Below are positions 30,802 through 62,823 of a DNA stretch of 64,000 nucleotides, piece after piece. This DNA comes from Pseudomonadota bacterium. GTDB lineage: Bacteria > Pseudomonadota > Gammaproteobacteria > Burkholderiales > Burkholderiaceae_C. Position 1 is the stretch's first letter; each line of letters starts with the position of its first letter. The position numbers and the translations under genes are program-made. The DNA lies in assembly GCA_020161065.1 (NCBI GenBank), contig JAIUPH010000007.1:248001-312000 (forward strand), written 5' to 3'. Under the pieces are notes generated by a model. It searched no databases, was not told the DNA's origin, and saw only the letters and a program-made list of their open reading frames with translations.

Positions 30802-30844
30802 TTGACGGCGGGTGGACGCCAAATCTATCATTGGTTCAACCATC
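30802..30844. promoter_or_regulatory. Divergent promoter with FadR-type operator (site A)
   Basis: For the plus strand, TTGACG (30802-30807), 18 bases and TATCAT (30826-30831) are followed directly by the perfect palindrome TGGTTCAACCA (30832-30842). The region also separates the divergent thiolase-like operon. The palindrome matches the TGGTNNNACCA shape bound by FadR/PdhR-type GntR proteins. Confidence 0.65.
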
Positions 30845-30865
30845 ACACAACCGAGAAATGCCTTC

Positions 30866-31642
30866 ATGACTGCTCCCCTCGTCTCGCTGGCCGGCCGCAC
30901 CGTCGTCGTCACCGGCGCGGCCCAAGGCATCGGCCGCGCCATCACCGAACTGGTGATCGAGCTCGGCGGCAACGCCGTCGCGCTGGACATGAACGGCGAC
31001 ACGCTGGCCGCCGCGCTGCAAGGCCTGCCGGCAGACCGCGTGCTGGCGGTGGTCGGCAGCGTCACCGACGCGGCGCTGGCCGCCAAGACGGTGGTCGACG
31101 CGGTGGCCCGCTTCGGCGCCGTGCACGGCCTGGTCAACAACGCCGGCATCACGCGGCCGGCGATGATCGACAAGATGACGGCCGAGCAGTGGCAGCAGGT
31201 GATCGACGTGCACCTCACCGGCAGCTTCCACTGGACGCAGGCGGTGGGCCGCCACCTGCTGCAGCGCGCCAAGGGCGGCGACGCCAGCGGCGGCGCCATC
31301 GTCAACATCTCGTCGGACGCCGGGCGCAAGGGCTCGATCGGCCAGATCAACTACGCCGCGGCTAAGGCCGGCATGCTGGGCATGACGATGACCGCGGCGC
31401 GCGAATGGGGCAAGTTCAACATCCGCGCCAACTCGGTGTGCTTCGGCCTGGTGGAAACGCCGATGACCGAGGTGGTGCGCAGCGACAAGTTCCGCGACAC
31501 CATGCTGGCGCAGATCCCGATGGGCCGCTGGGCGCAGCCCGAGGAAGTGGTGAAGACGGTGTGCTTCCTGCTGTCCGACGCGGCCGGCTACATCACCGGC
31601 CAGCATCTCGCGGTCAACGGCGGCTTCCACATCAGCTTGTGA
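30866..31642 (+). CDS. SDR-family oxidoreductase (3-hydroxyacyl-CoA dehydrogenase/FabG-like)
   Basis: A 258-residue classical short-chain dehydrogenase. The NAD(P) loop GAAQGIG, the LVNNAGITRP motif, catalytic Ser in NISSDAG and Tyr-Lys in INYAAAKAG, and a C-terminal VNGGFHISL are in place. An Asp after strand 2 (ALDMNGDT) favours NAD. It probably oxidises a 3-hydroxyacyl-CoA. ATG 30866 lies behind promoter/operator site A; an upstream ATG at 30812 would overlap the promoter. Confidence 0.9.
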   Translation: MTAPLVSLAGRTVVVTGAAQGIGRAITELVIELGGNAVALDMNGDTLAAALQGLPADRVLAVVGSVTDAALAAKTVVDAVARFGAVHGLVNNAGITRPAMIDKMTAEQWQQVIDVHLTGSFHWTQAVGRHLLQRAKGGDASGGAIVNISSDAGRKGSIGQINYAAAKAGMLGMTMTAAREWGKFNIRANSVCFGLVETPMTEVVRSDKFRDTMLAQIPMGRWAQPEEVVKTVCFLLSDAAGYITGQHLAVNGGFHISL

Positions 31643-31751
31643 GCGCCCTCGGGTCCAGGCGGGTGGCACGGCACGCTTGGCAAGGGGGATCCAGTCTCGA
31701 GCGGGCCGCGCGCTGGCCTTCGACGACCGCGCGCTTTGAAAGGAACGCAGC

Positions 31752-32798
31752 ATGTACATGCCCCCCGGCACCCGATTGAAGCTGGACCCGCAGGACGAGT
31801 ACACGCACCCGCCCGAAGCCGCGGGCAACTACAACGAGAGCATGTACTTCAACGCCTTCGACAGCGCGCGCGGCATCGGGCTGTGGCTGCGCCTGGGCAA
31901 CCGGCCCAACGAAGGCCATGCCGAGATGAGCGTCTGCGTCTACCTGCCCGACGGCCGCGTCGGCTTCATGTTCGCGCGGCCGGCGATCGAGCACAACCGC
32001 GAGATGGCCGCCGCCGGCATGCGCTTCGAGGTGGTCGAGCCCTTCAAGCGCCTGCGCGTCAGCTACCGCGGCGAGCTGCTGCTGATGGACGACCCGATGG
32101 CGATGGCCGACCCGAGCAGTGCCTTCAAACGTTATCCGAAGAAGCCGGCGACGATCGAGCTGGACTTCGAAGGCGTGTCGCCGATGCACGGCGGCGAGAT
32201 CGTCAACCTCGACGGCAGCCCCTGGGCGCTGGACCCCGAGCAGTCGGTCTACCGCGGCCACACCGAGCAGAACGTGGCGGTCAACGGCTTCGTCGAGGTC
32301 GACGGCACGCGCCACGAGCTGCGCCACGGCACCGGCTACCGCGACAAGTCCTGGGGCCCGCGGCACTGGCACAGCTTCAGCTGGTACAAATGGCTGCCGG
32401 TGACCTTCAGCCGCGACTTCGGCGTGCTGCTGTCGATCAAGCCGGTCGGCGGCAAGGCACTGCCGGTCAGCGGCAACGTGCTGCGCGGCGGCGTCTACGA
32501 GCCGGTGCTGGACGGCCGAATCGAGACCGACTACGACGCGCAGTACGTGCCGCGCGGCCTGACCGCGTGGGTCAAGACGGCGCAGGGCGAGTACACCATC
32601 ACCGGCCGCGTACTGACCACCGTGCCGCTGCGCCACAAGCTGCGCGGCGCGGCGGACTTCAGCCGCTACACGCGCATCACCGAAAGCATCAGCGAATACC
32701 GCTGCGGCGACCGGCGCGTGCTGGGCATGACCGAATACTGCGACGTGATGGCAGGCGGCGTGCCGCTGTCGGTCAGCGAGCAGCAGGCGGCCGCATGA
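31752..32798 (+). CDS. Conserved protein of unknown function (possibly DUF7064/DUF7065)
   Basis: A 348-residue soluble protein without signal peptide. It is rich in beta-strand-like segments and aromatic residues, including GTGYRDKSWGPRHWHSF, SWYKWLPVTFSR and the early FNAFDSARGIGLWLRLG. The pattern resembles large lipocalin/AttH-like proteins found in actinobacterial and betaproteobacterial terpenoid or steroid gene clusters. I do not recognise a catalytic motif. ATG 31752 follows GAAAGGAAC. The ATGA overlap with the crotonase gene ties it to acyl-CoA metabolism. It may bind a hydrophobic intermediate. Confidence 0.65.
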   Translation: MYMPPGTRLKLDPQDEYTHPPEAAGNYNESMYFNAFDSARGIGLWLRLGNRPNEGHAEMSVCVYLPDGRVGFMFARPAIEHNREMAAAGMRFEVVEPFKRLRVSYRGELLLMDDPMAMADPSSAFKRYPKKPATIELDFEGVSPMHGGEIVNLDGSPWALDPEQSVYRGHTEQNVAVNGFVEVDGTRHELRHGTGYRDKSWGPRHWHSFSWYKWLPVTFSRDFGVLLSIKPVGGKALPVSGNVLRGGVYEPVLDGRIETDYDAQYVPRGLTAWVKTAQGEYTITGRVLTTVPLRHKLRGAADFSRYTRITESISEYRCGDRRVLGMTEYCDVMAGGVPLSVSEQQAAA

Positions 32799-33616
32799 GT
32801 TCGCTGGAAACGCTGCAGATCGACGCGGCCGACGGCGTCGTCACCGTCACGCTGAACCGCCCCGGCGCGAAGAACGCGCTGTCGCCGCAGATGGCCGACG
32901 AGCTGACGGCGGCGCTACGCGCACTGCGTGCCGACGAGGCCGTGCGCGCCATCGTGCTGGCCGGCGCCGGCGGCGACTTCTGCGCCGGCGGCGACGTCAA
33001 GGGCATGGGCAGCGGCGGTCCGCGCAGCCCCGAGCAGCGGCGCGCGCTGATGCGGCGCTACCGCGAGCTGACGCTGGCGCTGACCGGGCTGGACAAGCCG
33101 CTGGTCGGCGCGCTGGACGGCGTGGCCTATGGCGCGGGCCTGAGCATCGCGCTGACGGCCGACCTCGTGCTGGTGAGCCGCCGCGTGCGCTGCGCGATGG
33201 TCTTCCACCGCATCGGCCTAGTGCCCGACTGCGGCGCCTGGTACACGCTGCCGCGCGTCGTCGGCCTGCAGCGCGCGAAAGAGCTGATCTACTCGGCGCG
33301 CGAGTTCGGCGCCGACGAGGCGCTGCGCATGGGCCTGGCGCTGGAAGTGCTGGCACCGGAGCAACTGCTGCCGCGTGCGCAGGCGCTGGCGCGCAGCCTG
33401 GCCGACGGGCCGGCGCTGGCCTTCAGTTTGTCGAAGCAGGCGCTGAATGCCTCGCTGCAAAGCGATCTGACCGCCATGTTGGACCTGGAGGCGGCGGCGC
33501 AAGCCATTGCCGGCGGCAGCGAATACAACGCCGACGCGCTGCGCCGCTTTGCAGCGCGCGAGCCGGCACGGCTGCGGTGGCCGGCTGCTCCTTCCTCTTC
33601 AGCGAACGAAGCATGA
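32795..33616 (+). CDS. Enoyl-CoA hydratase/isomerase family protein
   Basis: A 273-residue crotonase with GDFCAGGDVKGM and GVAYGAGLSIALTAD forming the oxyanion hole. As in the protein at 28391, the catalytic region is VFHRIGLVPDCGAWYTLPRVVG, with Asp but not the first hydratase Glu, and RAKELIYSAREF follows. It therefore belongs to the isomerase-like branch; the two paralogues are clearly related. It overlaps the genes on both sides by four bases. Confidence 0.88.
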   Translation: MSSLETLQIDAADGVVTVTLNRPGAKNALSPQMADELTAALRALRADEAVRAIVLAGAGGDFCAGGDVKGMGSGGPRSPEQRRALMRRYRELTLALTGLDKPLVGALDGVAYGAGLSIALTADLVLVSRRVRCAMVFHRIGLVPDCGAWYTLPRVVGLQRAKELIYSAREFGADEALRMGLALEVLAPEQLLPRAQALARSLADGPALAFSLSKQALNASLQSDLTAMLDLEAAAQAIAGGSEYNADALRRFAAREPARLRWPAAPSSSANEA

Positions 33617-34479
33617 TCGACTACGAACGAACCAAGGCCTGGCGCAGCGCCGACGTGCGCCACGCCTACACCACGCGCGACACCATCCTCTACGCGCTGG
33701 GCCTGGGCGCCGGGCAGAACCCGACCGACGCCGCCGAGCTGCGCCTGTGCTACGAGCGTGACCTGCTCGCGCTGCCGACGATGGCCGCGGTGCTGGCCTC
33801 GCCGGGCTTCTGGATGCGCGATCGCAACGAGCTGGGCATCGACTTCGTCAAGCTGGTGCACGGCGAGCAGGCGGTGACGATCCACCGCCCGCTGCCGGTG
33901 GCCGGCACGCTGGTCGGCGTGAGCCGCGTCACGCGCATCGTCGACAAGGGCGAAGGCAAGGGCGCGGTGATGTCGGTGGAAAGGCGGCTAACGGATGAAT
34001 CAGATGGTGCACTGGTCGCCACCGCCGAGCAGACGCTGTTCCTGCGCGGCGACGGCGGCTTCTCCAAGAACGGCGGCGGCGACGAGCCCGGCCCGCCGCC
34101 GCCGGCCACGCCCGAGACCGCGCCCGAGTTCACGCTGGACCTGGCGACGCGGCCCGAAGCCGCGCTGATCTACCGCCTCTCGGGCGACATCAACCCGCTG
34201 CACGTGGACCCCGGCTTTGCCGCCAAGGCCGGCTTCCCGCGGCCCATCCTGCACGGGCTGGCCACCTACGGCGTGGCCTGCCGCGCGATCGTCAAGGGCT
34301 TCTGCGGCGACGACCCCACGCGCCTGAAGCGCTTCAGCGCGCGGCTGACCTCGCCGGTGTTCCCGGGCGAGACGCTGCGCGTCGAGGCCTGGCGAAGCGG
34401 CGAAGGGGCAGTGGCTTTCCGCTGCCGCGTCGTCGAGCGCGACCTCGTCGTGCTGGCCAACGGGCAGGCGCTGCTATGA
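33613..34479 (+). CDS. MaoC/hydratase 2-type double-hotdog enoyl-CoA hydratase
   Basis: A 288-residue protein with the N-terminal and C-terminal hotdog halves of eukaryotic-type hydratase 2. The catalytic motif is intact: YRLSGDINPLHVDPGFAAKA with Asp and His, followed by PILHGLATYG. It should hydrate trans-2-enoyl-CoA to (R)-3-hydroxyacyl-CoA. ATG 33613 overlaps the crotonase stop; the frame continues upstream but only as read-through. It is co-translated with a crotonase and a quinone oxidoreductase. Confidence 0.9.
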   Translation: MIDYERTKAWRSADVRHAYTTRDTILYALGLGAGQNPTDAAELRLCYERDLLALPTMAAVLASPGFWMRDRNELGIDFVKLVHGEQAVTIHRPLPVAGTLVGVSRVTRIVDKGEGKGAVMSVERRLTDESDGALVATAEQTLFLRGDGGFSKNGGGDEPGPPPPATPETAPEFTLDLATRPEAALIYRLSGDINPLHVDPGFAAKAGFPRPILHGLATYGVACRAIVKGFCGDDPTRLKRFSARLTSPVFPGETLRVEAWRSGEGAVAFRCRVVERDLVVLANGQALL

Positions 34480-35459
34480 GCACGATGCAGGCCTGGCGCG
34501 TCGAGCAGATCACCGACCCGGCCACGCTGCTGCGGCGCGAGATCGAGCGGCCCGAGCCGGCGCCCGACCAATACCTCGTGAAGGTCGAGGCCGCCGGCGT
34601 CGCCTTCGGCGACACGCTGATCGTTCGCGGCCAGTACCAGGTGAAGCCGCCGCTGCCGTTCACGCCGGGCTCGGACGTCGTCGGCCGCATCGTCGGCGGC
34701 GAGCTTGATGGCCAGCGCGACGGCCAGCGCGTCGCCAGCTCCACCGCGCGCCAGGGCGGCTTCGCCCAGTACGTGCTGGTGCCGCGGCACGAGGTGGAGG
34801 CGATCGGCGACGACACGCCCGCCGGCGCCGCGCTGGCGCTGCGCAGCAACTTCCCCACCTCGCTGTACGCGCTGCGCCACGCGGCGAAGCTGCAGCTCGG
34901 CGAGACGCTGCTGGTGCACGCCGCGGCCGGCGGCGTCGGCAGCGCCGCGCTGCTGCTGGGCAAGCGCATCGGCGCGCGCGTGATCGCCACCGCCGGCGGG
35001 CCCGAGAAGGCCCGGCTCTGCCGCGAGCTGGGTGCCGATGAGGTGGTGGATTATCTGAACGGCGACTGGGTGAGCGCCGTGCGCGCGCTGGCGCCGCAAG
35101 GCGTCGACGTGGTCTACGACCCGGTGGGCGGCGAGACCGGCGCGCAAAGCCTGCGCGTGCTGGCCTTCGGCGCGCGCTACCTCGTGATCGGCTTCGCCGG
35201 CGGCGCGCTGACGCAGTTGCCCGCCAACCGGCTGCTGCTGCACAACGCCAGCGCCGTCGGCGTGCTGTGGGGCGAGCTGCGCAAGCGCGACCCGGCGCTC
35301 TCGGCCGCGCTGACGGCCGAGATCTACGCTGCCTTCCGCGACGGCAGCTTGCGCCCGCCGCCCGGCCGCGGCTACGCTTTCGACGAGCTGCCGCAGGCGC
35401 TGGCGGCGCTGCAAACGCGGCACACGGTGGGCAAGGTCTGGATCACGATGCCGGGTTGA
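34476..35459 (+). CDS. Zinc-independent MDR oxidoreductase (NADPH:quinone/enoyl reductase type)
   Basis: A 327-residue medium-chain reductase. The N-terminal GroES-like domain includes VAFGDTLIVRGQYQVKP and FTPGSDVVG; the Rossmann loop is HAAAGGVGSAALLLGK. The Cys and His zinc ligands of alcohol dehydrogenases are absent, as in QOR and enoyl-CoA reductases. It may reduce an enoyl-CoA or quinone formed in the pathway. It overlaps the MaoC gene by four bases. Confidence 0.9.
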   Translation: MSTMQAWRVEQITDPATLLRREIERPEPAPDQYLVKVEAAGVAFGDTLIVRGQYQVKPPLPFTPGSDVVGRIVGGELDGQRDGQRVASSTARQGGFAQYVLVPRHEVEAIGDDTPAGAALALRSNFPTSLYALRHAAKLQLGETLLVHAAAGGVGSAALLLGKRIGARVIATAGGPEKARLCRELGADEVVDYLNGDWVSAVRALAPQGVDVVYDPVGGETGAQSLRVLAFGARYLVIGFAGGALTQLPANRLLLHNASAVGVLWGELRKRDPALSAALTAEIYAAFRDGSLRPPPGRGYAFDELPQALAALQTRHTVGKVWITMPG

Positions 35460-35560
35460 CGATGCGGGTCTTCGAAGGGCTCGAGCTCGTCGGCGCCGCC
35501 GGCTTCACCGCCGCGCCGCGGCTTGAATGCAACCTTGGACGCGAAACTCAGGAGATGGCG

Positions 35561-36352
35561 ATGACGATCGAGAACCCCGACGAAGTGGTGCAGTTCCGGC
35601 GCGAAGGCGGCCACGTCGCCGTCGTCACGCTGAACCGGCCGCAGGCCCGCAACGCCGTCAGCCGCGCGCTGGCGCTGGGGCTGGACCGCGCGGTCAAGGC
35701 AGTGGAGGCCGACGCCGCGCTGCGCGTGGCCGTGCTCACCGGCAACGGCGCTGCGTTCTGCGCCGGCGCCGACTTGAAGGAGATGGCCGGCGGCGACGAT
35801 CCGCTGTCGCGCAGCACGCCCGACGGCGGCTTCGCCGGCTTCGTGTTCGCGCCGCGGCGCAAGCTGTGGATCGCCGCCGTCAACGGCCCCGCGGTGGCCG
35901 GCGGCTTCGAGATCATGCTGGCCTGCGACCTGGCCATCGCCAGCAGCAGCGCGGTGTTCGGCCTGCCCGAGGTGAAGCGCGGCCTGGCGGCCACCGCCGG
36001 CGGCCTGTTCCGCCTGCCGCGGCGCGTGCCGCGCGGGCTGGCGCTGGAGATGATCGCCAGCGGCGACCCCATCGACGCCGCGCGCGCCGAGCGGCTGGGC
36101 CTCGTCAACCGCGTGGTCGCGCCCGAGCAGTTGCTGCCCGAGGCGCTGGCGCTGGCGGCGCGCGTCGCGGCCAATGCGCCGCTGGCCGTCGAATGGAGCC
36201 TGGGCCTGGCGCGCCGCGCCACCGACGTCGACGAGCCGGCGCTGCGCCGCGAAGCGCACGAGCTGACGCAGCGCATCCTGGCCACCGACGACGCGCGCGA
36301 AGGCCCGCGTGCCTTTGCCGAGCACCGCGCGCCGCGTTGGACGGGCGCTTGA
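35561..36352 (+). CDS. Enoyl-CoA hydratase/isomerase family protein
   Basis: A 263-residue crotonase. AAFCAGADLKEM and GPAVAGGFEIMLACD form the oxyanion hole, and VFGLPEVKRGLAATAGG carries the Glu usual for hydratases (PE), although the following GGT-type loop is altered to AGGLFRLPRR. I chose ATG 35561 because CAGGAG precedes it by six bases; ATG 35555 is too close, and an in-frame ATG at 35462 would add a 33-residue extension. About 100 bases separate it from the oxidoreductase gene, without a clear promoter. Confidence 0.87.
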   Translation: MTIENPDEVVQFRREGGHVAVVTLNRPQARNAVSRALALGLDRAVKAVEADAALRVAVLTGNGAAFCAGADLKEMAGGDDPLSRSTPDGGFAGFVFAPRRKLWIAAVNGPAVAGGFEIMLACDLAIASSSAVFGLPEVKRGLAATAGGLFRLPRRVPRGLALEMIASGDPIDAARAERLGLVNRVVAPEQLLPEALALAARVAANAPLAVEWSLGLARRATDVDEPALRREAHELTQRILATDDAREGPRAFAEHRAPRWTGA

Positions 36353-36502: not shown

Positions 36503-37273
36503 ATGGAGCACCTGAGCGTCGAGCACCCGCAAGGCCACGTCGCCCTGGTCCGCATCGACCGGCCGGGCAAGCGCAATGCGCTGAGCGTCGCGCTGCGGCG
36601 CGAGCTGGTGCAGTTGCTGCAGGCGCTGGACGCCGACGCCCAAGTGCGCGCCATCGTGCTGGCCGGCGGCGCCGAGGTCTTTGCCGCCGGCGCCGACCTG
36701 GCCGAGATCGCCGACGCCGGCGCGGTGGAGATGGTGCTGCGCGACACCTTCAGCCTGTGGAGCGCGATCGGCCGCATCGCCACGCCGATGCTGGCCGCCG
36801 TGCGCGGCCAGGCGCTGGGCGGCGGCTTCGAGCTGGCGCTGCATGCCGACCTGATCGTCGCCGGCGAGGGCGCGCGCTTCGGGCTGCCGGAGATCAGGGT
36901 CGGGCTGATGCCCGGCGGCGGCGGCACGCAGCGGCTGCTGCGGCTGATCGGCCGCCAGCGCACGCTGCAGTACCTGCTGACTGGCGACGTGATGAGCGCG
37001 CCGCAGGCGCTGGCCCTGGGCATCGTCAACGCCGTGGTGCCGGACGCCGAGGTCGAGCCCGCCGCCGTGGCGCTGGCCGCGCGCGTGGCCGCGATGCCGC
37101 CGCTGGCGGTGCGCCAGATCCGCGAGGTGGTGGCCGCCGGCGCCGACTGCCCGCTGGACGCCGCGCTGCGCCTGGAGCACAAGGCGCTGCAACTGCTGTG
37201 CGCCAGCGACGACAAGCGCGAAGGCATCCGCGCCTTCTTCGAGAAGCGCCCGCCGCGCTATGTCGGGCGTTAG
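36503..37273 (+). CDS. Enoyl-CoA hydratase
   Basis: A 256-residue crotonase. Oxyanion-hole segments are VFAAGADLAEI and GQALGGGFELALHAD. The first catalytic Glu is present in FGLPEIRVGLMPGGGGTQRL; the second, normally Glu about 20 residues later, reads RQRTLQYLLTG with Gln. It is nevertheless the most canonical hydratase sequence of the five in the window. It is the first gene behind operator site F, followed by two Bug receptors and a CoA-transferase. Confidence 0.9.
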   Translation: MEHLSVEHPQGHVALVRIDRPGKRNALSVALRRELVQLLQALDADAQVRAIVLAGGAEVFAAGADLAEIADAGAVEMVLRDTFSLWSAIGRIATPMLAAVRGQALGGGFELALHADLIVAGEGARFGLPEIRVGLMPGGGGTQRLLRLIGRQRTLQYLLTGDVMSAPQALALGIVNAVVPDAEVEPAAVALAARVAAMPPLAVRQIREVVAAGADCPLDAALRLEHKALQLLCASDDKREGIRAFFEKRPPRYVGR

Positions 37274-37283
37274 GAGATTGACG

Positions 37284-38279: not shown

Positions 38280-38292
38280 ACGGAGGCAGGCC

Positions 38293-39264: not shown

Positions 39265-39295
39265 CGCTGCAATCAAGCGCACGCGCCGACCGGCC

Positions 39296-42210: not shown

Positions 42211-42233
42211 ATGGTATAAAGGATCAACCAATG
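42211..42233. promoter_or_regulatory. Divergent promoter region with degenerate FadR-type operator (site G)
   Basis: TATAAA (42215-42220) is followed directly by GGATCAACCAATG (42221-42233). Read on the minus strand this is ATTGGTTGATCC: one half-site is perfect and the other has one change. The spacing to the -10 box matches sites A and F. It lies between the Bug gene and the gntR gene at 42292. Confidence 0.5.
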
Positions 42234-44682: not shown

Positions 44683-44684
44683 CG

Positions 44685-48575: not shown

Positions 48576-48578
48576 GCC

Positions 48579-50542: not shown

Positions 50543-50559
50543 CAAGGAAGTTGAACGGC

Positions 50560-53420: not shown

Positions 53421-53455
53421 CGTCGTCTCCTGGGTGGATGGGTTCAGCTAGCGCG

Positions 53456-54591
<1,136 letters not shown>

Positions 54592-54595
<4 letters not shown>

Positions 54596-54987
54596 GCTCG
54601 GGCTCCTGGTGGTTTGGATGCGGTGGGCTCGTCGGGCGCAGCCCAGTTCGGGTGGTTGATGGCCAGCGCCTCGCGCAGCGTGCGGCGCAGGTGGTCGATC
54701 AGCGCCGGGTCGTCCAGCGGCTGGTGGCCGTCGCCGATGGCCGTGGCCAGTTCGGCTTGCAGCGCCGCGGGCTCGCCGTCGTGGCCCAGCAGCGCGGCCA
54801 GGCGTTCGCGTTCGGCCGCGTGCTGCGCGGGCCTGAGCTGCAGTTCGCGCACCACGGTGCGCAACACGTTGGCGCTGATGCGGGTCTGGAAGCGGTGATA
54901 GCCCGCCAGCGTGGGCAGCAGCTCGGCTTCCAGGTAATCGGCCGCCGCCTGCAGCAGCGTGGCGGCGTCGGGGACGAAGGCGCTCAT
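54592..54987 (-). CDS. DUF6285 small protein
   Basis: A 131-residue, mostly helical protein ([54 protein letters not shown]) with no membrane segment. It resembles DUF6285 proteins, which are regularly encoded between an aminoglycoside-phosphotransferase-like kinase and an acyl-CoA dehydrogenase. It is similar in size and place to LvaB, the small partner of the hydroxyacyl-CoA kinase LvaA. Overlaps with both neighbours imply fixed stoichiometry. Confidence 0.75.
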
Positions 54988-56030: not shown

Positions 56031-56034
56031 CGCT

Positions 56035-57564
56035 TCAGATCTTGCGACCGGCCGCTTCCCAGAACGGCTCGCGCAGTTGGCGCTTGAAGATCTTGCCGCT
56101 GTCCTGGCGCGGCAGCCGGTCGTGGAAGTCGATGCGCCGCGGCACCTTCACGCTGGCCAGCCGCTCGCGCAGCCATTGGCGGATGTCGTCGGCGGTCAGC
56201 AGCGCGCCGGGCTGCCGTTCCACCGCGGCGGCCAGCGCCTCGCCCATGTCGTCGTCGGGGATGCCGAACACGGCGCAGTCCTGCACGCCGGGGCATTGCA
56301 TCAGCGCCATCTCGGTCTCGGCCGGGTAGACGTTGGTGCCGCCGATGATCACCATGTCGGCGCGGCGGTCGCACAGGTAGAGGTGGCCGTCCTTCAGGTA
56401 GCCGATGTCGCCGACGCTGATCAGCCCGTCGCGCTCCACGCCGGCGCGCTTGGCGGGGTTGTTGTGGTACGTGAAGTCGGCATAACAAGGCACCCGCATG
56501 TAGATCTCGCCGACCTCGCCTTCGGGCAGCCGATCGCCGAACTCGTCGTAGAACGCGATGCGCGTGCCCGGCGTCGGTACGCCCACGCTGCCGGGGTGGC
56601 TGCGCGAATCGTCCGGCGTGGCCAGCGTGGCGGTGCCGACCTCGGTGCCGCCGTAGGTCTCGTAGACCACCGGGCCCCACCACTGCATGAACTCGCGCTT
56701 GACCTCGGCGGGGCAGGGCGCGCCGGTGTGCGTGACCCAGCGGATCGAGCCGATGTCGTAGCGGTCGCGGACCGCCTGCGGCAGCTTGAGCAGGCGCACG
56801 AACATCGTCGGCACCATCACCGCGTGGGTGATGCGGTGCTGCTCGATGGCGGCCAGCGTCGCCTCGGGGTCGAAGCGCGAGTGCAGCACGATCAGCTCGG
56901 CGTTGGGCAGCGCCTGGCGGCCATAGGCATTGGGCGATGCGTGGTACAGCGGCCCCGGGATCAGGCAGCGCGCGCCGGGCACCAGGCCGTAGACGCGCTC
57001 CAGCATCTTGGCGTAGGCGGCGCTCTGCTCGGGCGTCGCCGGGTCGCGGCGCACGCCCTTGGGGTGGCCGGTGGTGCCGGAGGTGTAGATCATCGTCGCG
57101 CGCGCGCGCAGCGGTGGGCCGGCCCAGGGCTCGAAGCCGGCGGCCCATTCGGGCCACACCACGTCACCGGGCAGCGCTTGCGTCTGCTCGGGCGCCAGCG
57201 CGTAGGCGGCGGCGATCTCGTCCGGCGTCGGCACCACCAGCACCTGCAGCCCCGCGGGCAGCGTGCCGCGCAGCGGCGCCAGCAGGTCGGCATGCGCCAC
57301 CAGCACCTTGGGGCCCGCGTCGTCCAGCACGTAGCGCACCTCGTCGGGCCGGCCGTGCCAGTTGATCGGCACGCAGTAGGCGCCCAGCGCGGCGGCCGCG
57401 GTCTGCGCCTCGAAGAACGCGAAGTCGTTGCGCAGCAGCAGCGCGATGACGTCGCCTTCGCGCACGCCCAGCGCATGCAGCCCGCCGGCGGCGCGGCGGC
57501 CTTGCAGCAGCACCGCGTCGCGGTCGACGCCGCGGCCGTCGAGGAGGATGCGGGCGGTGGACAT
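56035..57564 (-). CDS. Acyl-CoA synthetase (AMP-forming)
   Basis: A 509-residue adenylate-forming CoA ligase. Core motifs: MIYTSGTTGHPKGVRRD (P-loop), YETYGGTEVG, and the hinge LYLCDRRADMVIIGGTNVYP. The catalytic Lys is in PRQDSGKIFKRQLRE near the C terminus. ATG 57564 has AGGAG ten bases upstream; the frame continues to 57648, which would overlap the promoter. It is first in the five-gene minus-strand operon controlled by operator site H and should activate its substrate acid. Confidence 0.92.
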   Translation of the reverse strand: MSTARILLDGRGVDRDAVLLQGRRAAGGLHALGVREGDVIALLLRNDFAFFEAQTAAAALGAYCVPINWHGRPDEVRYVLDDAGPKVLVAHADLLAPLRGTLPAGLQVLVVPTPDEIAAAYALAPEQTQALPGDVVWPEWAAGFEPWAGPPLRARATMIYTSGTTGHPKGVRRDPATPEQSAAYAKMLERVYGLVPGARCLIPGPLYHASPNAYGRQALPNAELIVLHSRFDPEATLAAIEQHRITHAVMVPTMFVRLLKLPQAVRDRYDIGSIRWVTHTGAPCPAEVKREFMQWWGPVVYETYGGTEVGTATLATPDDSRSHPGSVGVPTPGTRIAFYDEFGDRLPEGEVGEIYMRVPCYADFTYHNNPAKRAGVERDGLISVGDIGYLKDGHLYLCDRRADMVIIGGTNVYPAETEMALMQCPGVQDCAVFGIPDDDMGEALAAAVERQPGALLTADDIRQWLRERLASVKVPRRIDFHDRLPRQDSGKIFKRQLREPFWEAAGRKI

Positions 57565-57607: not shown

Positions 57608-57648
57608 AATGGTTCTACAAATGATAGCGCCGCGCGCCGTGCTTGCAA
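57608..57648 (-). promoter_or_regulatory. Promoter with FadR-like operator (site H)
   Basis: On the minus strand, TTGCAA (57643-57648), 16 bases and TATCAT (complement of 57621-57626) form a good promoter. Next comes a palindrome-like element, on the plus strand TGGTTCTACAA (57610-57620). It differs from the complement of site C (TGGTTCTACCA) at one base. The arrangement, operator just after the -10, repeats that of the other sites. Confidence 0.6.
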
Positions 57649-57661: not shown

Positions 57662-58537
57662 CTAGAAGTCGGGTTCCTGCCACCAGGGATAGACCGGCGG
57701 CAGGTCGGCGCCGACGCGGCCGGGAAAGTGCGGCGCGCGCTTCTCCAGGAAGGCGGCGACGCCCTCGCGCGCGTCGGCCGTGGCGCCGCGCTGGGCGATG
57801 GCGCGGCTCTCGACGCGGTGCGCTTCCATCGGGTGCGCCGCGCCCAGCATGCGCCACATCATCTGCCGCGTCAGCGCCACCGAGACCGGCGCGGCGTTGT
57901 CGGCAATCTCCAATGCCAGCGCGCGGGCGCGCGGCAGCAGCTCGTCGGGCGCGCACAGCTCGCGCAGCAGGCCGCCGGCCAGCGCCTCGTCGGCGGCCAG
58001 CAGCCGGCCCGACAGCGACCACTCCAGCGCGCGGCCGATGCCCACCACGCGCGGCAGGAACCAGCTGGCGCAAGCGTCGGGCACGATGCCGCGGCGCGTG
58101 AAGACGAAGCCGATGCGCGCCTCGCGGCTGGCGATGCGGATGTCCATCGGCAGCAGCATCGACGCGCCGACGCCCACCGCCGCGCCGTTGACCGCGGCGA
58201 TCAGCGGCTTGGTGCTGGCGAACAAGCGCAGCGCCAGCAGGCCGCCGCCGTCGCGGCCGCAATCGCCGCCGGTTTCGTCGGCGTGCAAGGCCTGCGTGGC
58301 GGGGTCGAAGGTGGTGGCGCCGGCCGACAGGTCGGCACCGGCGCAGTAGGCGCGCCCGGCGCCGGTGAAGACGATGGCGCGCACCGCGTCGTCGGCATCG
58401 GCGAGGTCGAGCGCGCGGCACAGCTCGCGGCGCATCGGCGCCGTCATCGCGTTCAACGCCTGCGGGCGGTTCAGCGTGATCGTCAGCACCGGGCCTTCGC
58501 GGGCCCACTGCAGCGTGTCGAAGACGGGGGCTGTCAC
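57662..58537 (-). CDS. Enoyl-CoA hydratase/isomerase family protein
   Basis: A 291-residue crotonase. AYCAGADLSAGA and GAAVGVGASMLLPMD form the oxyanion hole; the catalytic region reads VFTRRGIVPDACASWFLPRVVG, again with Asp and without the first hydratase Glu. The start is GTG 58537, overlapping the dehydrogenase stop (GTGA). It ends with an unusual aromatic tail, PPVYPWWQEPDF. It is the third gene of the unit led by operator site D. Confidence 0.88.
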   Translation of the reverse strand: MTAPVFDTLQWAREGPVLTITLNRPQALNAMTAPMRRELCRALDLADADDAVRAIVFTGAGRAYCAGADLSAGATTFDPATQALHADETGGDCGRDGGGLLALRLFASTKPLIAAVNGAAVGVGASMLLPMDIRIASREARIGFVFTRRGIVPDACASWFLPRVVGIGRALEWSLSGRLLAADEALAGGLLRELCAPDELLPRARALALEIADNAAPVSVALTRQMMWRMLGAAHPMEAHRVESRAIAQRGATADAREGVAAFLEKRAPHFPGRVGADLPPVYPWWQEPDF

Positions 58538-59691
58538 GCCAGCAACGCCGCCAGCCGCCGCGCCTGCGCGTCGGCGTCGCCGAACAAATGGTCGGCCACG
58601 TGCACGCGGCGCAGGCAATGGCCGACCGCGTATTCCTCGGTCATGCCGATGCCGCCGTGGCACTGGATGGCGTGCTGGCAGACCTGGCGCGCATGGCGGC
58701 CGACGATCAGCTTGGCGCGCAGCAGGTCGGCGGCCGAGTCCTCGGCTTCCGGCCGGTCGGCCGCCACCGCGGCGGCGATGGCCATGCTGCGCGCCATCTC
58801 CAGGCTGACCAGCATGTCGGCCGCGCGGTGGCGCAGCGCCTGGTTCTCGCCGATCAGGCGGCCGAACTGCTTGCGCACGTTGAGGTAGTCCAGCGCCAGC
58901 CGGTAGGCGGCCTGCGCGGCGCCCACCATGTCGGCGCACAGCGCGGCGATGCCGGCAGCGTTGACGGCCGTGAGGATGCGCTGGAAAGCGGCGCCGTCGT
59001 GCGGATCGGACAGCGGGTCCGACAGCGGGTCCGCCAACGCTTGCGCCGGCGTCGCGTTGAACGTCAGCTCGGAGGCCGGCGTGTCGTCGACGAGGCGGAA
59101 GTCGCGCCGCTGCAGGCCGGCCGCGCCGGCGTCGACGACGAAGAAAGCGCAGCCTTGCGTGGCATCGGCCGCGCCGGCGATGCGGGCGCTGACGACGAAG
59201 TGCTGCGCCTGCGGGCCGCTGATCACCGGCAGCTTGACGCCGCTGATCGTCCAGCCGCCAGGGCCTTTTTCGGCGCGCGTTTCGATCCAAAGATCAGCGT
59301 GCCGCGTGCCCGGCTCGTCGTGCGCCCAGGCGACGACGGTCGTGCCTTGCGCCAAACCCGGCAGCAGCCGCGCCGCGGGTTCGCCGCCGGCCACGCGCAG
59401 CGCGGTCGCGCCCAGCACGGCGGAGGCCAGCACGGGCTCGGTGCACAGCGCGGCGCCGCAGGCCTGCAGCACCGGCAGCAGGTCTTCCAGCCGGCCGCCG
59501 AAGCCGCCTTGCGCTTCGGGCACCAGCAGCGCCGTCACGCCCAGTTCGGCCAGGCGGCCATACAACGCGGCGCTGCGGCCGTCGGCACTGGCCACGATCG
59601 CGCGGCGCTGCTCGAAGCTGCAGTGGTCGGCCAGCAGGCGGCCGACGCTGTCCTGGAGTTGCTGCTGCTCGTCGTTGAGTTGGAAGTTCAT
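58534..59691 (-). CDS. Acyl-CoA dehydrogenase, probably the non-catalytic partner of a heteromer
   Basis: A 385-residue acyl-CoA dehydrogenase homologue of lower similarity to the rest. FAD region motifs are weak (WAHDEPGTRHADLW), but VRKQFGRLIGENQAL and CHGGIGMTEEYAVGHCLRR are normal. The C terminus, VADHLFGDADAQ, has neither the Glu nor the GT motif of active subunits. In actinobacterial steroid catabolism such subunits form alpha2beta2 dehydrogenases with an active partner (ChsE1/ChsE2 type), and the upstream gene would be that partner. A 12-bp duplication (59009-59032) gives an internal DPLSDPLSDP segment. Confidence 0.82.
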   Translation of the reverse strand: MNFQLNDEQQQLQDSVGRLLADHCSFEQRRAIVASADGRSAALYGRLAELGVTALLVPEAQGGFGGRLEDLLPVLQACGAALCTEPVLASAVLGATALRVAGGEPAARLLPGLAQGTTVVAWAHDEPGTRHADLWIETRAEKGPGGWTISGVKLPVISGPQAQHFVVSARIAGAADATQGCAFFVVDAGAAGLQRRDFRLVDDTPASELTFNATPAQALADPLSDPLSDPHDGAAFQRILTAVNAAGIAALCADMVGAAQAAYRLALDYLNVRKQFGRLIGENQALRHRAADMLVSLEMARSMAIAAAVAADRPEAEDSAADLLRAKLIVGRHARQVCQHAIQCHGGIGMTEEYAVGHCLRRVHVADHLFGDADAQARRLAALLA

Positions 59692-59695
59692 GTCG

Positions 59696-60862
59696 TCAGC
59701 CCACGATCGTCTTGGCGACGATGTCTTTCTGCACTTCGCTCGTGCCGCCGTAGATGCTGGCGGCGCGCGAATAGAAGTAGCGCGGCGACAGCGGCCCGTG
59801 CCGTTCCGGCACGCCGTGGATGCCGCGCCGCTCCAGCCCCGCAGGCCCGTCGATGCGCGCCAGCAGCGCGGCCAGCGCCTGCTGCAGCTCCACGCCCTTG
59901 AGCTTGAGCACCGAGGCGAAGGCCGGTTGTGCCTGCTGCGCCTGCGGGTCGAGCAGGAAGCGCCAGTTGGTCACCTCCAGTGCGCGCACTTCGGCGTCCA
60001 GCTCGGCGAACTCGGCCTTCAGCTTCGGGTCGGCGGCCAGCGGGCGGCCGCCTTCGGTGATGCGCGAAGCCAGCTCGCGCGCGTAGTCCAGCCGCTCGCG
60101 GCACAGGCCGACGTTGGCGATGCCGCTGCGCTCGTTCACCAGCAGGTACTTGGCGCAGTCCCAGCCGCGGTTCTCGTCGCCCACCCGGTTGGCGACGCTG
60201 ACGCGCACGTTGTCGAAGAACACCTCGTTCAAGTGGTGCTCGCCGTCGATCGAGACGATGGGCCTGATCGTGATGCCCGGCGTCTTCAGGTCGATCAGCA
60301 GGAACGAGATGCCTTCCTGCTTGCGCGCCTCGGTGCTGGTGCGCACCAGCGCGAACACCCAGTCGGCCAGGTGCGCGGTGGTGGTCCAGATCTTCTGGCC
60401 GTTGACGATGTAGTCGTCACCGTCACGCTCGGCGCGCGTGCGCAGCGAGGCCAGGTCCGAGCCCGAGCCGGGTTCCGAGAAGCCCTGGCAGAACCACAGG
60501 TCCAGCCGCGCCAGGCGAGGCAGGAAGTGGTCCTTCTGCGCCTCGGTCCCGTACTTCAGCAGCACCGGGCCCAGCATGCCGGTGTTGAAGGCCTGCGGCA
60601 GCGGCGCCGGCGCGCGGTAGATCTCGTCCAGCAGGATCAGCCGCTCGGCCAGGCCCAGGTCGGCGCCGCCGTAGCGCCGCGGCCAGTGCGGCGCGGCCCA
60701 GCCGCGCTCGTGCAGGATGCGTTGCCAGGCCACGGTGTCCTGCTTGCGCGGCGGGTGGCCCAGGCGCAGGCGCTCGCGGATCTCGGCGGGCAGCCGCTCG
60801 CGGATGAAGGCGCGCACCTCGTCGCGGAAGGCGCGCTGTTCGGCGCTGAAGTCGAGGTTCAT
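59696..60862 (-). CDS. Acyl-CoA dehydrogenase, probably the active partner of a heteromer
   Basis: A 388-residue acyl-CoA dehydrogenase with CQGFSEPGSGSDLASLRTRA and the WTTTAHLADWVFALVRT substrate/FAD segments. The C terminus ends SIYGGTSEVQKDIVAKTIVG, with Gly at the medium-chain Glu position, as in FadE26/FadE29-type subunits. ATG 60862 gives MNLDFSAEQRAF, the typical start; the frame upstream runs into operator site D. It lies four bases before the second dehydrogenase, and the two probably form a heterotetramer. Confidence 0.88.
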   Translation of the reverse strand: MNLDFSAEQRAFRDEVRAFIRERLPAEIRERLRLGHPPRKQDTVAWQRILHERGWAAPHWPRRYGGADLGLAERLILLDEIYRAPAPLPQAFNTGMLGPVLLKYGTEAQKDHFLPRLARLDLWFCQGFSEPGSGSDLASLRTRAERDGDDYIVNGQKIWTTTAHLADWVFALVRTSTEARKQEGISFLLIDLKTPGITIRPIVSIDGEHHLNEVFFDNVRVSVANRVGDENRGWDCAKYLLVNERSGIANVGLCRERLDYARELASRITEGGRPLAADPKLKAEFAELDAEVRALEVTNWRFLLDPQAQQAQPAFASVLKLKGVELQQALAALLARIDGPAGLERRGIHGVPERHGPLSPRYFYSRAASIYGGTSEVQKDIVAKTIVG

Positions 60863-60920: not shown

Positions 60921-60934
60921 ACGGTTCAACCAAT
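60921..60934. promoter_or_regulatory. FadR-type operator in divergent region (site D)
   Basis: The core GGTTCAACC (60923-60931) lies within ACGGTTCAACCAAT. On the minus strand it follows a -10-like CCTATT, so it would control the dehydrogenase unit, and it lies 107 bases upstream of the gntR gene at 61041. Confidence 0.6.
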
Positions 60935-61040: not shown

Positions 61041-61904
61041 ATGAACAGCAGCGCGGTGGCGGACGCCGGCGGCCCCAACTTTCAGCCCGTGCGCACGCGG
61101 CGCGCCTTCGAGGCGGTGTGCGACCAGGTGCGGCGCCAGGTGGCCGACGGCACGCTGCTGCCCGGCCAGCGCCTGCCCGGCGAGCGCGAGCTGGCCGAGC
61201 GCTTCGGCATCAGCCGCAGCGGCGTGCGCGAGGCGCTGCGCAGCCTGGAACTGGCCGGCCTGGTGGAAGCGCGCACGGGCGCCAGCGGCGGCTTCTTCAT
61301 CCGCTCGTCGGGCAGCGACGGCGTCACGCAGGCGGTGCGCGACATGGTGGCGCTGGGCCAGGTGCCCACCGCCAGCGTGACCGAGGCGCGCATCGAGGTC
61401 ACCAACGTCGCGCTGCGCCTGGCCGCGCAGCGGGCCACCAAGGAAGAGCTGGACGCGATCGAGGCCGACATCGAGCACCACGCCGCGCTGTTCAAGGCCG
61501 GCCACGGCTCGCGCAACACGCGCGCGCTGACCGAGTTCTACCGCCTGCTCGCGCGCGCCACGCACAACGAAGTGATCGTGATGCTGATCGACGCGCTGTC
61601 GGAGATCACGCGCACGCTGCTGGCGCGCATCGACCCACAGCCTTTCCCCGAGATCATCCAGGTGCGCCGCAAGGTGCTGAAGCACTTGCGCGCCGGCGAG
61701 CCCGAGAAGGCCTGCGCCGCGATGGCGGCGCATTTCCGCAACCTTAACCGTTACCTGGAAGAAAAGCCCTGGGCCCAGGGCGCGGCGGGCGCCGCCGGGA
61801 CGGCGGCCCAGGCGGTGGCCAAGGCCGCAGGCGCGGCGCGCAAGGCCGCTGCGCCGGCCGCGGCGGCCGGCGCCCGCAAGGCCGCGGCCCGCAAGCCTGG
61901 CTGA
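61041..61904 (+). CDS. GntR-family regulator, FadR subfamily (regulator 2)
   Basis: A 287-residue regulator. The winged helix has VRRQVADGTLLPGQRLPGER and recognition region ISRSGVREALRSLELAGLVE, very similar to that of regulator 1, then an FCD domain with TEFYRLLARATHN. The last 45 or so residues are a low-complexity Ala/Lys/Arg tail (AAKAAGAARKAAAPAAAAGA) unlike other FadR proteins and reminiscent of histone-H1-like DNA-binding tails. GGAGGAA provides a strong ribosome site. It faces the divergent dehydrogenase unit across operator site D. Confidence 0.92.
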   Translation: MNSSAVADAGGPNFQPVRTRRAFEAVCDQVRRQVADGTLLPGQRLPGERELAERFGISRSGVREALRSLELAGLVEARTGASGGFFIRSSGSDGVTQAVRDMVALGQVPTASVTEARIEVTNVALRLAAQRATKEELDAIEADIEHHAALFKAGHGSRNTRALTEFYRLLARATHNEVIVMLIDALSEITRTLLARIDPQPFPEIIQVRRKVLKHLRAGEPEKACAAMAAHFRNLNRYLEEKPWAQGAAGAAGTAAQAVAKAAGAARKAAAPAAAAGARKAAARKPG

Positions 61905-61913
61905 GCAGCCGGT

Positions 61914-62744
61914 TCAAGCGCGCGGCGGCGGCGCCGACAGCGCATCGGCGCTGGCGTCGCCCAGCCCGGCGCCGCCGTCGCAGTCGAACACCGTGCCGGT
62001 GACGTAGCGCGCGTTGTCGCTGGCCAGGAACAAGGCCATGTCGGCGACGTCGCGGACCTGCCCGTAGTCGCGCAGCGCCAGCCGCTGCTTGATCGCGCGT
62101 TCGCGCTCGGCCGTCGCGGCGAGCCGCGCCATGCCTTCGGTGCCGGCGATCGGCCCCGGCGACAGCGCGTTGACGCGCACGCCCGCCGGCCCCCATTCCA
62201 GCGCCAGGCAGCGCACCAGCATGTTGACGCCGGCCTTGGCCGCGTTGGCGTGCGCCTGGAACGGGCCCGGGTGCGTGGCCCCCGGCGCGGTGATCGCGAT
62301 CAGCGAAGCGCCGGGCTGGCGCAGGTGCTCGAAGCTCGCGCGCAGCACGTGGAAGGTGCCGATCAGGTCGATCTCGACCACGGTGCGAAAGCCGTTGGGC
62401 GACAAATGCGCCGCCGGCGCGTGGAAGTTGCCCGCGGCGCCGGAGACGACGATGTCGATCGGCCCGAAGGTCGCGGCCGTCTCGCGCACCACGGCGGCCA
62501 CGGCGTCGTAGTCGCGCACGTCGGCGGCGCGCGCCAGCACCGCATCGTCCGCGGCGGGCAGCGTGCGCGCCGCCGCGGCGATGCGCTCGGCGCTGCGGCT
62601 CAGGATCGCCACGCGCGCACCATGGCGCGCGAAATGCTGCGCGATGCCGAGGTTGATGCCGCCGGACGCGCCGGCGACCAGCGCGACCTTGCCGGCCAGC
62701 GCGTCGGGCGCGAAGGCGTCGCGGCCGGTGAAGGTGGAGGGCAT
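61914..62744 (-). CDS. SDR-family 2,4-dienoyl-CoA reductase-like protein
   Basis: A 276-residue SDR. The cofactor loop is GASGGINLGIAQHFA and the SGAAGNFHAPA motif replaces NNAG. The catalytic Tyr position reads QAHANAAKAGVN, i.e. without Tyr but with the Lys, followed by EWGPAGVRVNALSPGPIAG; this is the pattern of peroxisomal-type 2,4-dienoyl-CoA reductases, not of ordinary SDRs. It would reduce dienoyl-CoA with NADPH. It is convergent with gntR and divergent from the thiolase gene, behind site E. Confidence 0.87.
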   Translation of the reverse strand: MPSTFTGRDAFAPDALAGKVALVAGASGGINLGIAQHFARHGARVAILSRSAERIAAAARTLPAADDAVLARAADVRDYDAVAAVVRETAATFGPIDIVVSGAAGNFHAPAAHLSPNGFRTVVEIDLIGTFHVLRASFEHLRQPGASLIAITAPGATHPGPFQAHANAAKAGVNMLVRCLALEWGPAGVRVNALSPGPIAGTEGMARLAATAERERAIKQRLALRDYGQVRDVADMALFLASDNARYVTGTVFDCDGGAGLGDASADALSAPPPRA

Positions 62745-62773
62745 GACGGAGGACTCCTCGTTCTTGGGCCATC

Positions 62774-62823
62774 GATGGCGATGGCGTTGGCGTTGGCGAT
62801 TGCATTATGATGGTTGAACCAAT
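62774..62823. promoter_or_regulatory. Divergent promoter with hexamer repeat and FadR-type operator (site E)
   Basis: Five imperfect hexamers (GATGGC, GATGGC, GTTGGC, GTTGGC, GATTGC; 62774-62803) lead to a -10-like TATGAT (62806-62811). It abuts the perfect palindrome TGGTTGAACCA (62811-62821). The repeat occupies the -35 to -10 region, so changes in copy number would change promoter geometry. No good -35 is visible. Confidence 0.6.

What the first reader, a model, noticed from the sequence alone, without database searches (positions are those of the whole stretch)
30830..62823. One FadR-type palindrome (TGGTT-N-AACCA) at eight promoters across 32 kb
Copies or near-copies lie at 30832, 36464, 42221, 47360, 48500, 57610, 60923 and 62811. 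In at least five cases (A, E, F, G, H) the site directly follows a -10 hexamer (TATCAT, TATGAT, TATAAA, TATAAA, TATCAT), as expected for repression at the start point. Five sites lie between divergent units. Two FadR-subfamily regulators are encoded in the same stretch. Together this implies a single dispersed regulon for the whole acyl-CoA island, which defines its membership better than gene neighbourhood alone.
Basis: partly seen in the sequence, partly recalled or inferred. Interest (0 to 1): 0.8.

Follow-up and report, generated by a model that had tools for sequence, protein, structure and literature searches.

The report
One operator shared across catabolic island
A short palindromic DNA sign repeated in front of many gene groups of an acyl-CoA degradation island is a real, evolutionarily conserved control site, probably read by a small family of related FadR-type repressors, so it marks which genes are likely switched on together to degrade a still unidentified acid.

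Summary
The eight sites are real and far above chance. With flanks the consensus is about AWTGGTTNAACCAWT, a PdhR-type box of the FadR subfamily. In the 6.29 Mb genome, 9 of 17 matches to WWTGGTTNAACCAWW (up to 2 mismatches; reversed control 3) lie in 94 kb around the finding. A matrix from the eight sites finds six more nearby and 44 in related islands of three other genera, with 0 reversed-matrix hits in 439 kb. At the box A promoter the box is present in 8 of 8 close loci (Variovorax, Bradyrhizobium, Verticiella, an unclassified MAG) and 0 of 72 more distant ones. A -10-like hexamer lies just before it in 35 of 83 oriented promoters. The regulon reading stands, with corrections: it extends beyond the window, firmly to the left and less firmly to the right; it skips window 1-28,000; and at least four FadR-type paralogues sit in the region, not two. 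Bradyrhizobium has only the R0 type, encoded outside this window, yet keeps the boxes. Binding and inducer are not shown. The enzymes partly resemble a steroid C/D-ring (HIP)-like set; the substrate is unknown. New member of a known kind.

The parts
30832..30842 (.). Box A (TGGTTCAACCA) between thiolase-like 29621-30787(-) and SDR 30866-31642(+); follows TATCAT
   Evidence: box before the relatives of the thiolase in 3 of 3 sister islands and in 8 of 8 loci at 83-85% identity
36463..36473 (.). Box B (AGGTACGACCA), weakest core match, after TATAAA, upstream of enoyl-CoA hydratase 36503-37273(+)
   Evidence: no relative of this gene in the sister stretches
42220..42230 (.). Box C (AGGATCAACCA) between TctC receptor 41203-42192(-) and regulator R1 42292-43056(+)
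47359..47369 (.). Box D (TGGTTGAACCT) between Rieske oxygenase 45998-47314(-) and reductase 47465-48442(+)
   Evidence: box before the Rieske relative in 2 of 3 sister islands
48500..48510 (.). Box E (TGGTAGAACCA) upstream of TctC receptor 48579-49577(+)
   Evidence: 1 of 2 relatives has a box
57610..57620 (.). Box F (TGGTTCTACAA) upstream of CoA ligase 56035-57564(-), after TATCAT on the minus strand
   Evidence: 1 of 3 relatives has a box
60922..60932 (.). Box G (CGGTTCAACCA) between acyl-CoA dehydrogenase 59696-60862(-) and regulator R2 61041-61904(+); same arrangement in G122
   Evidence: box before the dehydrogenase relative in 3 of 3 sister islands
62811..62821 (.). Box H (TGGTTGAACCA) between SDR 61914-62744(-) and thiolase 62844-64052(+); overlaps TATGAT
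   Evidence: 1 of 1 SDR relatives and 0 of 3 thiolase relatives have a box
42292..43056 (+). R1, GntR+FCD (FadR-subfamily) regulator; its clade was not found in the fetched sister-island stretches
61041..61904 (+). R2, GntR+FCD regulator; clade members in G053, G122, G177, three Variovorax genomes, G206, Verticiella and Hydrogenophaga
28391..30787 (-). Unit behind box A (leftward): thiolase-like (PRK08142 family), zinc-ribbon/OB-fold protein 29218-29616, enoyl-CoA hydratase 28391-29209
30866..36352 (+). Unit behind box A (rightward): SDR, DUF7064 protein, enoyl-CoA hydratase 32702-33613, MaoC hydratase, zinc dehydrogenase, enoyl-CoA hydratase
36503..40516 (+). Unit behind box B: enoyl-CoA hydratase, two TctC receptors, CoA-transferase III
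43058..47314 (-). Unit behind box D (leftward): Rieske oxygenase (closest PDB 7fhr), CoA-transferase III 44685-45953, thiolase-like, zinc-ribbon/OB-fold protein
47465..51711 (+). Reductase (Fer2), TctC, NMO-family flavoprotein 49502-50539, CoA-transferase III; boxes D and E
52443..57564 (-). CoA ligase, APH-type kinase, DUF6285 protein, acyl-CoA dehydrogenase, TctC; behind box F (operon extent not tested)
57665..60862 (-). Two acyl-CoA dehydrogenases (best PDB 4x28 and 6wy8) and enoyl-CoA hydratase 57665-58537; behind box G
61914..64000 (.). SDR 61914-62744(-) and thiolase 62844-64052(+, runs off the window); behind box H

Best explanation
The palindrome AWTGGTTNAACCAWT is the operator of a regulon that ties together separate transcription units of one catabolic island (C33 about 227-235 kb and 276-312 kb; less surely on to 321 kb). 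The readers are FadR-subfamily (GntR+FCD) proteins encoded in the same region: R2 (61041) and R1 (42292) in the window, R0 (C33:225698-226528) and R3 (C33:319075-319845) outside it. Shown: the boxes, their concentration in the island, a box before relatives of many of the same genes in other genera, their position on or next to -10-like elements, and their association with this regulator subgroup. Inferred: a regulator dimer on the box blocks RNA polymerase; a carboxylate or CoA-thioester intermediate binds the FCD domain and releases it, inducing the units together; R2 and R1 also control their own genes. Which paralogue does what is open; R2 and R0 are the best candidates.
For: Clustering: 9 of 17 genome-wide matches in 1.5% of the genome, binomial 8e-13, the span being chosen after the fact. 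Matrix: 14 sites in 184 kb of the contig and 44 in 255 kb of G122, G177 and G053, 0 reversed-matrix hits in 439 kb; 57 of 58 outside my called genes, allowing 30 bp at gene ends. Of the 8 off-island pattern matches, 7 were looked at: 4 lie inside long coding-like frames, 2 at contig ends, 1 near the stop-to-stop start of a frame. Relatives: of 19 own box-led genes 15 have a relative in the sister stretches, and for 12 of these at least one relative has a box upstream (22 of 35 relatives). Thiolase promoter: 8 of 8 loci at 83-85% identity, 0 of 72 at 80% or less; the scan kept the best 80 of 564 (Fisher 3e-11). Family scan: of 200 genomes, the 4 with an R2 match at E below 1e-80 have 6/0, 10/0, 7/0 and 10/0 boxes (forward/control); none of the other 196 has 6 or more with control 0. 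Promoters: -10-like hexamer starting in the 14 bp before the core in 35 of 83, against 0, 0, 7 and 2 of 83 in four control windows. Fit: R1's best PDB match is PdhR, whose box is AATTGGTnnnACCAATT (PMC7660256, passages); R2's best is 2di3, a GntR-family protein; FadR-subfamily consensus TKGT-3 nt-ACMA (PMC4494728, section 10).
Against: No binding, expression or inducer data. Weak boxes (36463, 233620, 315240, 320869, 320883) may not all work; 233620 lies at the very start of the called gene 231967-233631. The matrix also scores 19.4 and 17.6 at C29:78558 and C37:449413, inside coding-like frames, so a score of 16 alone is not proof. The A/T flanks of the box themselves resemble part of a -10 hexamer, which inflates the promoter test. 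13 of 35 relatives lack a box, among them all 3 relatives of the thiolase behind box H. Own R0 and R3 have no box directly upstream. The other family genomes with weaker R2 matches (G044, G055, G097, G115, G158, G192) have 0-2 near-perfect boxes. Verticiella (G207) has five homologues but only 2 near-perfect boxes against control 1, and Hydrogenophaga (G211) has an R2-clade gene without a box upstream and a thiolase without one. Activation is not excluded where the box touches a -35-like element.
Confidence: 0.86

Rival explanations
1. One paralogue, of the R0 type encoded outside the window, is the true master regulator; R1 and R2 are secondary or control other genes.
For: Three Bradyrhizobium genomes hold exactly one match of the group at E up to 1e-25, and it falls in the R0 clade (support 100), yet they carry 6/0, 9/3 and 9/0 near-perfect boxes, of which 4, 6 and 6 lie on the contig of that regulator, TTSAA-centred ones included. 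The R0 clade is also in G053, G122, G177 and G206.
Against: Two Variovorax genomes (G200, G201) have many boxes and no R0-clade protein among their 4 matches each; in a third (G205) 4 of 5 matches were classified and none is R0. Boxes upstream of R2-clade genes are TTSAA-centred in 6 of 8. Own R0 has no box of its own.
Confidence: 0.3
2. The paralogues divide the boxes: the skeleton AATGG-N5-CCATT is shared and the central five bases weight the reader (TTSAA for R2, TCCAA-like for R0 and R1, NNAGT-like for a sister clade).
For: Boxes upstream of the regulators' own genes are TTSAA in 6 of 8 R2-clade cases and 0 of 14 in the other clades, Fisher 4e-4.
Against: Cases are not independent (three Variovorax, three Bradyrhizobium); 4 of the 14 rows were read from a sister strain's locus, though one search shows the same centres in their own. 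Bradyrhizobium has TTSAA boxes without an R2-clade match. By the published trend, Asn at HTH position 39 prefers A/T next to the box centre (PMC4494728); I place that position, by my own alignment, at the Asn of R0 and R1, which would fit TTSAA for them.
Confidence: 0.35
3. The box is a repeated element or compositional accident of intergenic DNA, not an operator.
For: The bare 11-bp core at 1 mismatch is only 84 against 51 control genome-wide.
Against: 0 reversed-matrix hits in 439 kb, a box before relatives of the same genes in other genera, and concentration in the island.
Confidence: 0.02
4. Another palindrome-binding regulator (for example TetR or IclR type) reads the box.
Against: The box matches the FadR-subfamily consensus, lies upstream of FadR-type genes in several genomes, and co-occurs with this subgroup.
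Confidence: 0.05

Closest known systems
PdhR of Escherichia coli and its box AATTGGTnnnACCAATT
   Same: GntR wHTH protein, same palindrome skeleton, several units controlled; best PDB relative of R1 (box from PMC7660256, passages).
   Different: Not the same orthologue group: R2 scores 88.5 bits against the PdhR cut-off of 330. Targets are one island of acyl-CoA and oxygenase genes rather than pyruvate metabolism; several paralogues co-reside.
KstR2 regulon of HIP (steroid C/D ring) catabolism in actinobacteria (PMC5380842, passages)
   Same: Partly similar enzyme set: CoA ligase, CoA-transferase pair related to IpdAB, flavoprotein of the NMO family (IpdC is described as FabK-like), SDRs, crotonases, thiolase, several acyl-CoA dehydrogenases; a compact regulon.
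   Different: KstR2 is a TetR-type repressor (recalled); here FadR-type. The CoA-transferase B subunit is closer to glutaconate CoA-transferase. Steroid use is not shown: the KshA_C search found nothing in 7 genomes, but nothing in its controls either.
Other FadR-subfamily regulons (LldR, GlcC, DgoR and others named in PMC4494728)
   Same: TKGT-3 nt-ACMA operators, carboxylic-acid effectors, divergent arrangements.
   Different: As I recall usually one regulator and few units; here about 14 boxes and at least four paralogues in about 95 kb.

Membership tests
FadR-subfamily (GntR) regulator with its operator | GntR wHTH plus FCD C-terminal domain in R0, R1, R2, R3 | tested here: met
   Pfam PF00392 and PF07729 above cut-off
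FadR-subfamily (GntR) regulator with its operator | Palindrome TKGT-N3-ACMA in A/T-rich context near promoters | tested here: met
   consensus from PMC4494728
FadR-subfamily (GntR) regulator with its operator | Regulator binds the box; effector releases it | not testable with these tools
   needs gel shift or DAP-seq and a ligand assay
PdhR orthologue | NCBIfam PdhR equivalog score above cut-off | tested here: not met
E. coli FadR orthologue | FadR_C-type acyl-CoA-binding domain instead of FCD (recalled) | tested here: not met
   FCD found and no FadR_C model listed
HIP (KstR2-type) pathway | IpdA, IpdB, IpdC-like, acyl-CoA dehydrogenases, thiolase, SDR, crotonases present | tested here: inconclusive
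   A subunit 133 bits to 6coj against 106-113 for glutaconate CoA-transferases; B subunit 86.7 bits to glutaconate CoA-transferase against 60.1 to 6con_B; NMO 49502-50539; dehydrogenases near 4x28 and 6wy8; no orthology test against characterised proteins
HIP (KstR2-type) pathway | KstR2 TetR-type repressor | tested here: not met
   no TetR-type hit among the proteins scanned; the regulators found are GntR+FCD and one IclR-type; not all genes of the region were scanned

The most novel reading that the evidence does not exclude
One operator skeleton, several resident readers: an expanded set of FadR-type paralogues (R0-R3) shares AATGG-N5-CCATT across one catabolic island, with the central five bases weighting each box towards one paralogue, and a tandem R2-R0 pair (adjacent in G122, G177 and G206, split here) acting as a two-input or heterodimeric switch that senses different intermediates of the same pathway.
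Probability: 0.3. Interest if true: 0.7.

Novelty: new member of a known kind. Interest (0 to 1): 0.5.

Why it matters
The box gives a sequence-only rule for membership in an uncharacterised catabolic island: it separates island genes from about 40 kb of unrelated DNA lying between them and pulls in units outside the window. It turns an unknown pathway into a testable co-expression set that also occurs in Variovorax, Bradyrhizobium and Verticiella. It also offers a natural series (one regulator of the group in Bradyrhizobium, two in G206, four or five in Variovorax, at least four around this island) for studying how paralogous repressors share or divide one operator.

Tried and rejected
Rejected: chance repetition (0 reversed-matrix hits in 439 kb); the idea that the bare 11-bp core defines the regulon (84 against 51 control genome-wide); that R1 is the conserved regulator (no member of its clade in the fetched sister-island stretches; only 12 candidates per genome were scored, so one elsewhere in those genomes could be missed); that the window's first 28 kb belongs to the regulon (no box at 16 or more; 0 of 33 called genes at C33:234.9-276 kb with a relative at 45% identity and 60% coverage in the fetched sister stretches); orthology to E. 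coli FadR or PdhR.

Led nowhere: a steroid assignment through KshA_C (0 of 7 genomes, controls silent too). Literature on the motif or this island: searches listed nothing; two searches listed two papers (PMC2864759, PMC4417242), seen in the listing only; (a PDB code) gave four unrelated papers; and one search were read as listings except for PMC4494728 and PMC5380842. No claim is made that the regulon is unpublished; only these searches of open-licence PMC papers were run. No structure prediction, phage, plasmid or Rfam search was run.

The gene calls come from my own simple codon-usage scripts and missed genes that were added by hand or found later; operon limits are approximate. The first version of the regulator classification read one strand only and was redone. 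Of the 8 off-island matches the one at C16:2 was not fetched; functions of the genes near the others were not looked up.
Full report
OBSERVATION. Seven of the eight sites match TGGTTNAACCA with 0 to 2 mismatches and the eighth (36463) with 3. Shuffling gives 4.8 such hits per window against 12 seen, with 1 of 100 shuffles reaching 12. The exact core is found 5 times in the 6.29 Mb genome (control 1): 30832, 62811, one 20.7 kb before the window, and one each on C16 and C39. With one mismatch the genome has 84 (control 51), so the core by itself would be a poor marker. Adding the A/T flanks seen in the eight sites, WWTGGTTNAACCAWW with up to two mismatches gives 17 genome-wide (control 3), 9 of them within C33:227,282-320,881; binomial 8e-13, with the span chosen after seeing the sites. 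Of the 8 others, 7 were examined: 4 lie inside long coding-like frames (C29, C3, two on C37), 2 at the ends of contigs C18 and C27, and C16:343888 near the beginning of a stop-to-stop frame; two of the coding ones still score 19.4 and 17.6 on the matrix.

MATRIX SCAN. A 19-position matrix from the eight sites, read on both strands, was run over 184 kb of the same contig and over stretches of G122 (84 kb), G177 (66 + 10 kb) and G053 (three pieces, 95 kb), other genera of the same family found through R2. At score 16 or more it gave 14, 12, 14 and 18 sites; the matrix read backwards gave none in the 439 kb. Fifty-seven of 58 lie outside called genes when 30 bp are allowed at gene ends; the exception lies in a called minus-strand ORF that overlaps the region upstream of the R2 relative on the other strand and is probably a bad call. 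The gene calls are rough and missed some genes. The six new own-genome sites are C33:227284, 233620, 233658, 315240, 320869 and 320883.

WHICH GENES. Relatives (45% identity, 60% coverage, in the fetched stretches only) were found for 8 of 8 called genes at C33:227-234.9 kb, 0 of 33 at 234.9-276 kb, 25 of 31 at 276-312 kb and 2 of 8 at 312-325 kb. So the box-free middle, which includes window 1-28,000, is not part of the shared island, and the right-hand extension is the least certain. Of 19 own genes led by a box, 15 have relatives; for 12 of them at least one relative has a box within 250 bp upstream, 22 of 35 relatives in all. The boxes at the thiolase of A and the dehydrogenase of G are found in 3 of 3 sister islands; the thiolase behind H in 0 of 3.

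CONSERVATION BEYOND THE FAMILY. The thiolase-like protein next to box A was used for the single genome-collection scan; the best 80 of 564 confirmed loci were kept. All 8 loci at 83-85% identity (three Variovorax, three Bradyrhizobium, Verticiella sediminum and one unclassified MAG) have the box 49-94 bp before the start of the match; none of the 72 at 80% or less has one within 300 bp, and 25 of the 26 boxes found in the 80 loci (1.43 Mb, reversed control 3) lie in those 8. Whole-genome counts of near-perfect boxes (up to 1 mismatch, forward/control) in these genomes were 10/0, 11/0, 6/0, 9/3, 9/0, 11/0, 7/1 and 2/1 (Verticiella); in eight comparison genomes, chosen from the 72, 3/4, 4/0, 1/0, 4/0, 1/4, 5/3, 4/2 and 2/2. 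In three of the family genomes the hits are likewise clustered: in G122 all 7 at up to 1 mismatch lie at C1:80-131 kb, in G177 7 of 10 at C5:302-350 kb with two more on C16, in G053 all 10 on three contigs.

PROMOTER GEOMETRY. For 83 site-gene pairs oriented towards a downstream start (up to 250 bp; a site between divergent genes counts twice), 35 have a -10-like hexamer starting within the 14 bp before the core, against 0, 0, 7 and 2 in four control windows of the same number of offsets. The box's own A/T flank contributes to this. The median distance from box centre to called start is 54 bp. Another group has a TTGACA-like -35 just after the box. This suits steric repression; it does not exclude activation at some units.

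REGULATORS. R1 (42292-43056) and R2 (61041-61904) are GntR+FCD proteins, 38% identical over 229 aligned positions. At E up to 1e-40, with 12 candidates scored, the own genome has three further homologues: R3 at C33:319,075, R0 at C33:225,698-226,528 and R4 on C16. The tree places R2 with members from G053, G122, G177, three Variovorax, G206, Verticiella and Hydrogenophaga (support 94), and R0 with G053, G122, G177, G206 and three Bradyrhizobium (support 100). R2- and R0-type genes are adjacent in G122, G177 and G206. R1 belongs to a third clade with Variovorax, Verticiella and Hydrogenophaga members but none from the fetched sister-island stretches. Bradyrhizobium has only the R0 type (one match each at E up to 1e-25, all 74-82 candidates scored) and still has the boxes.

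BOX SUBTYPES. Upstream of the regulators' own genes the skeleton AATGG-N5-CCATT recurs while the centre varies by clade: TTSAA in 6 of 8 R2-clade cases and 0 of 14 in the other clades; the remaining 14 of 36 regulators had no box at the threshold used. Shared ancestry inflates this, and Bradyrhizobium speaks against a strict code, so it is offered as a hypothesis only.

PATHWAY. The box-led units encode CoA ligases, acyl-CoA dehydrogenases, crotonases, a MaoC hydratase, SDRs, thiolases, family III CoA transferases, a Rieske oxygenase very close to PDB 7fhr with a reductase, and TctC receptors. Behind box C33:227284 is a family I CoA-transferase pair whose A subunit is nearest to the IpdA-type entry 6coj (that this entry is IpdA is recalled) while the B subunit is nearer to glutaconate CoA-transferase. 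With the NMO-family protein 49502-50539 and two dehydrogenases near 4x28 and 6wy8/6wy9, the set partly resembles the ring-opening enzymes of HIP catabolism described in PMC5380842 (passages). A ring-containing carboxylic acid is the likely class of substrate; this is inference, and steroid use is not shown.

MECHANISM. Shown: operator-like boxes, their distribution, recurrence before relatives of the same genes, promoter overlap, and association with this regulator subgroup. Inferred: repressor dimers on the box, release by a pathway acid or CoA thioester bound in the FCD domain, coordinated induction of the box-led units, and autoregulation of R1 and R2.

VERDICT. The finding is real and well supported as a conserved FadR-subfamily regulon; it reaches beyond the window and has more candidate regulators than proposed. 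It is a new member of a known kind, with an interesting open question about how several paralogues share one operator.

Noticed in passing
window 1-28000 (C33 about 235-276 kb): A stretch without relatives in the fetched sister islands (ABC and TRAP transport genes, SGL-type lactonase genes, another GntR+FCD gene at 9193-9825, an IclR gene) separates the two box-bearing blocks, as if inserted or the island were rearranged.
   Followed up: partly
C33:320869 and 320883 (L004); G177:C5:302828 and 302842: Two boxes exactly 14 bp apart in both genomes, at least one of each pair with a GGACC or GGGCC half; may allow cooperative binding.
   Followed up: no
C16:2-16, C18:82994-83008, C27:17936-17950 (own genome): The same near-box CATGGTTCAACCCAT lies at the very end of three contigs, suggesting the end of a repeated element that broke the assembly rather than an operator.
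   Followed up: partly
C33:233720-234912 (L003:5720-6912): An acyl-CoA dehydrogenase and a TctC gene, both called as C-terminal parts only although relatives are longer; possibly a frameshift or a gene-call error. Described only.
   Followed up: no
window 51874-52272: BrnA-type antitoxin gene inside the island.
   Followed up: no
C33:315325-318029 (L004): FAD-dependent ring hydroxylase family protein and a gentisate 1,2-dioxygenase-like protein (below its cut-off) behind the weak box at C33:315240; possible aromatic branch.
   Followed up: partly
window 37284-38279, 38341-39264, 41203-42192, 48579-49577, 52443-53420: Five TctC receptors in about 16 kb, with no matching membrane components among the proteins scanned.
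   Followed up: no
L148, L153, L154, L155, L161 (Variovorax, Hydrogenophaga): A sister clade of regulators has boxes with the same AATGG-N5-CCATT skeleton but NNAGT centres (one of the five has TTTGT).
   Followed up: partly
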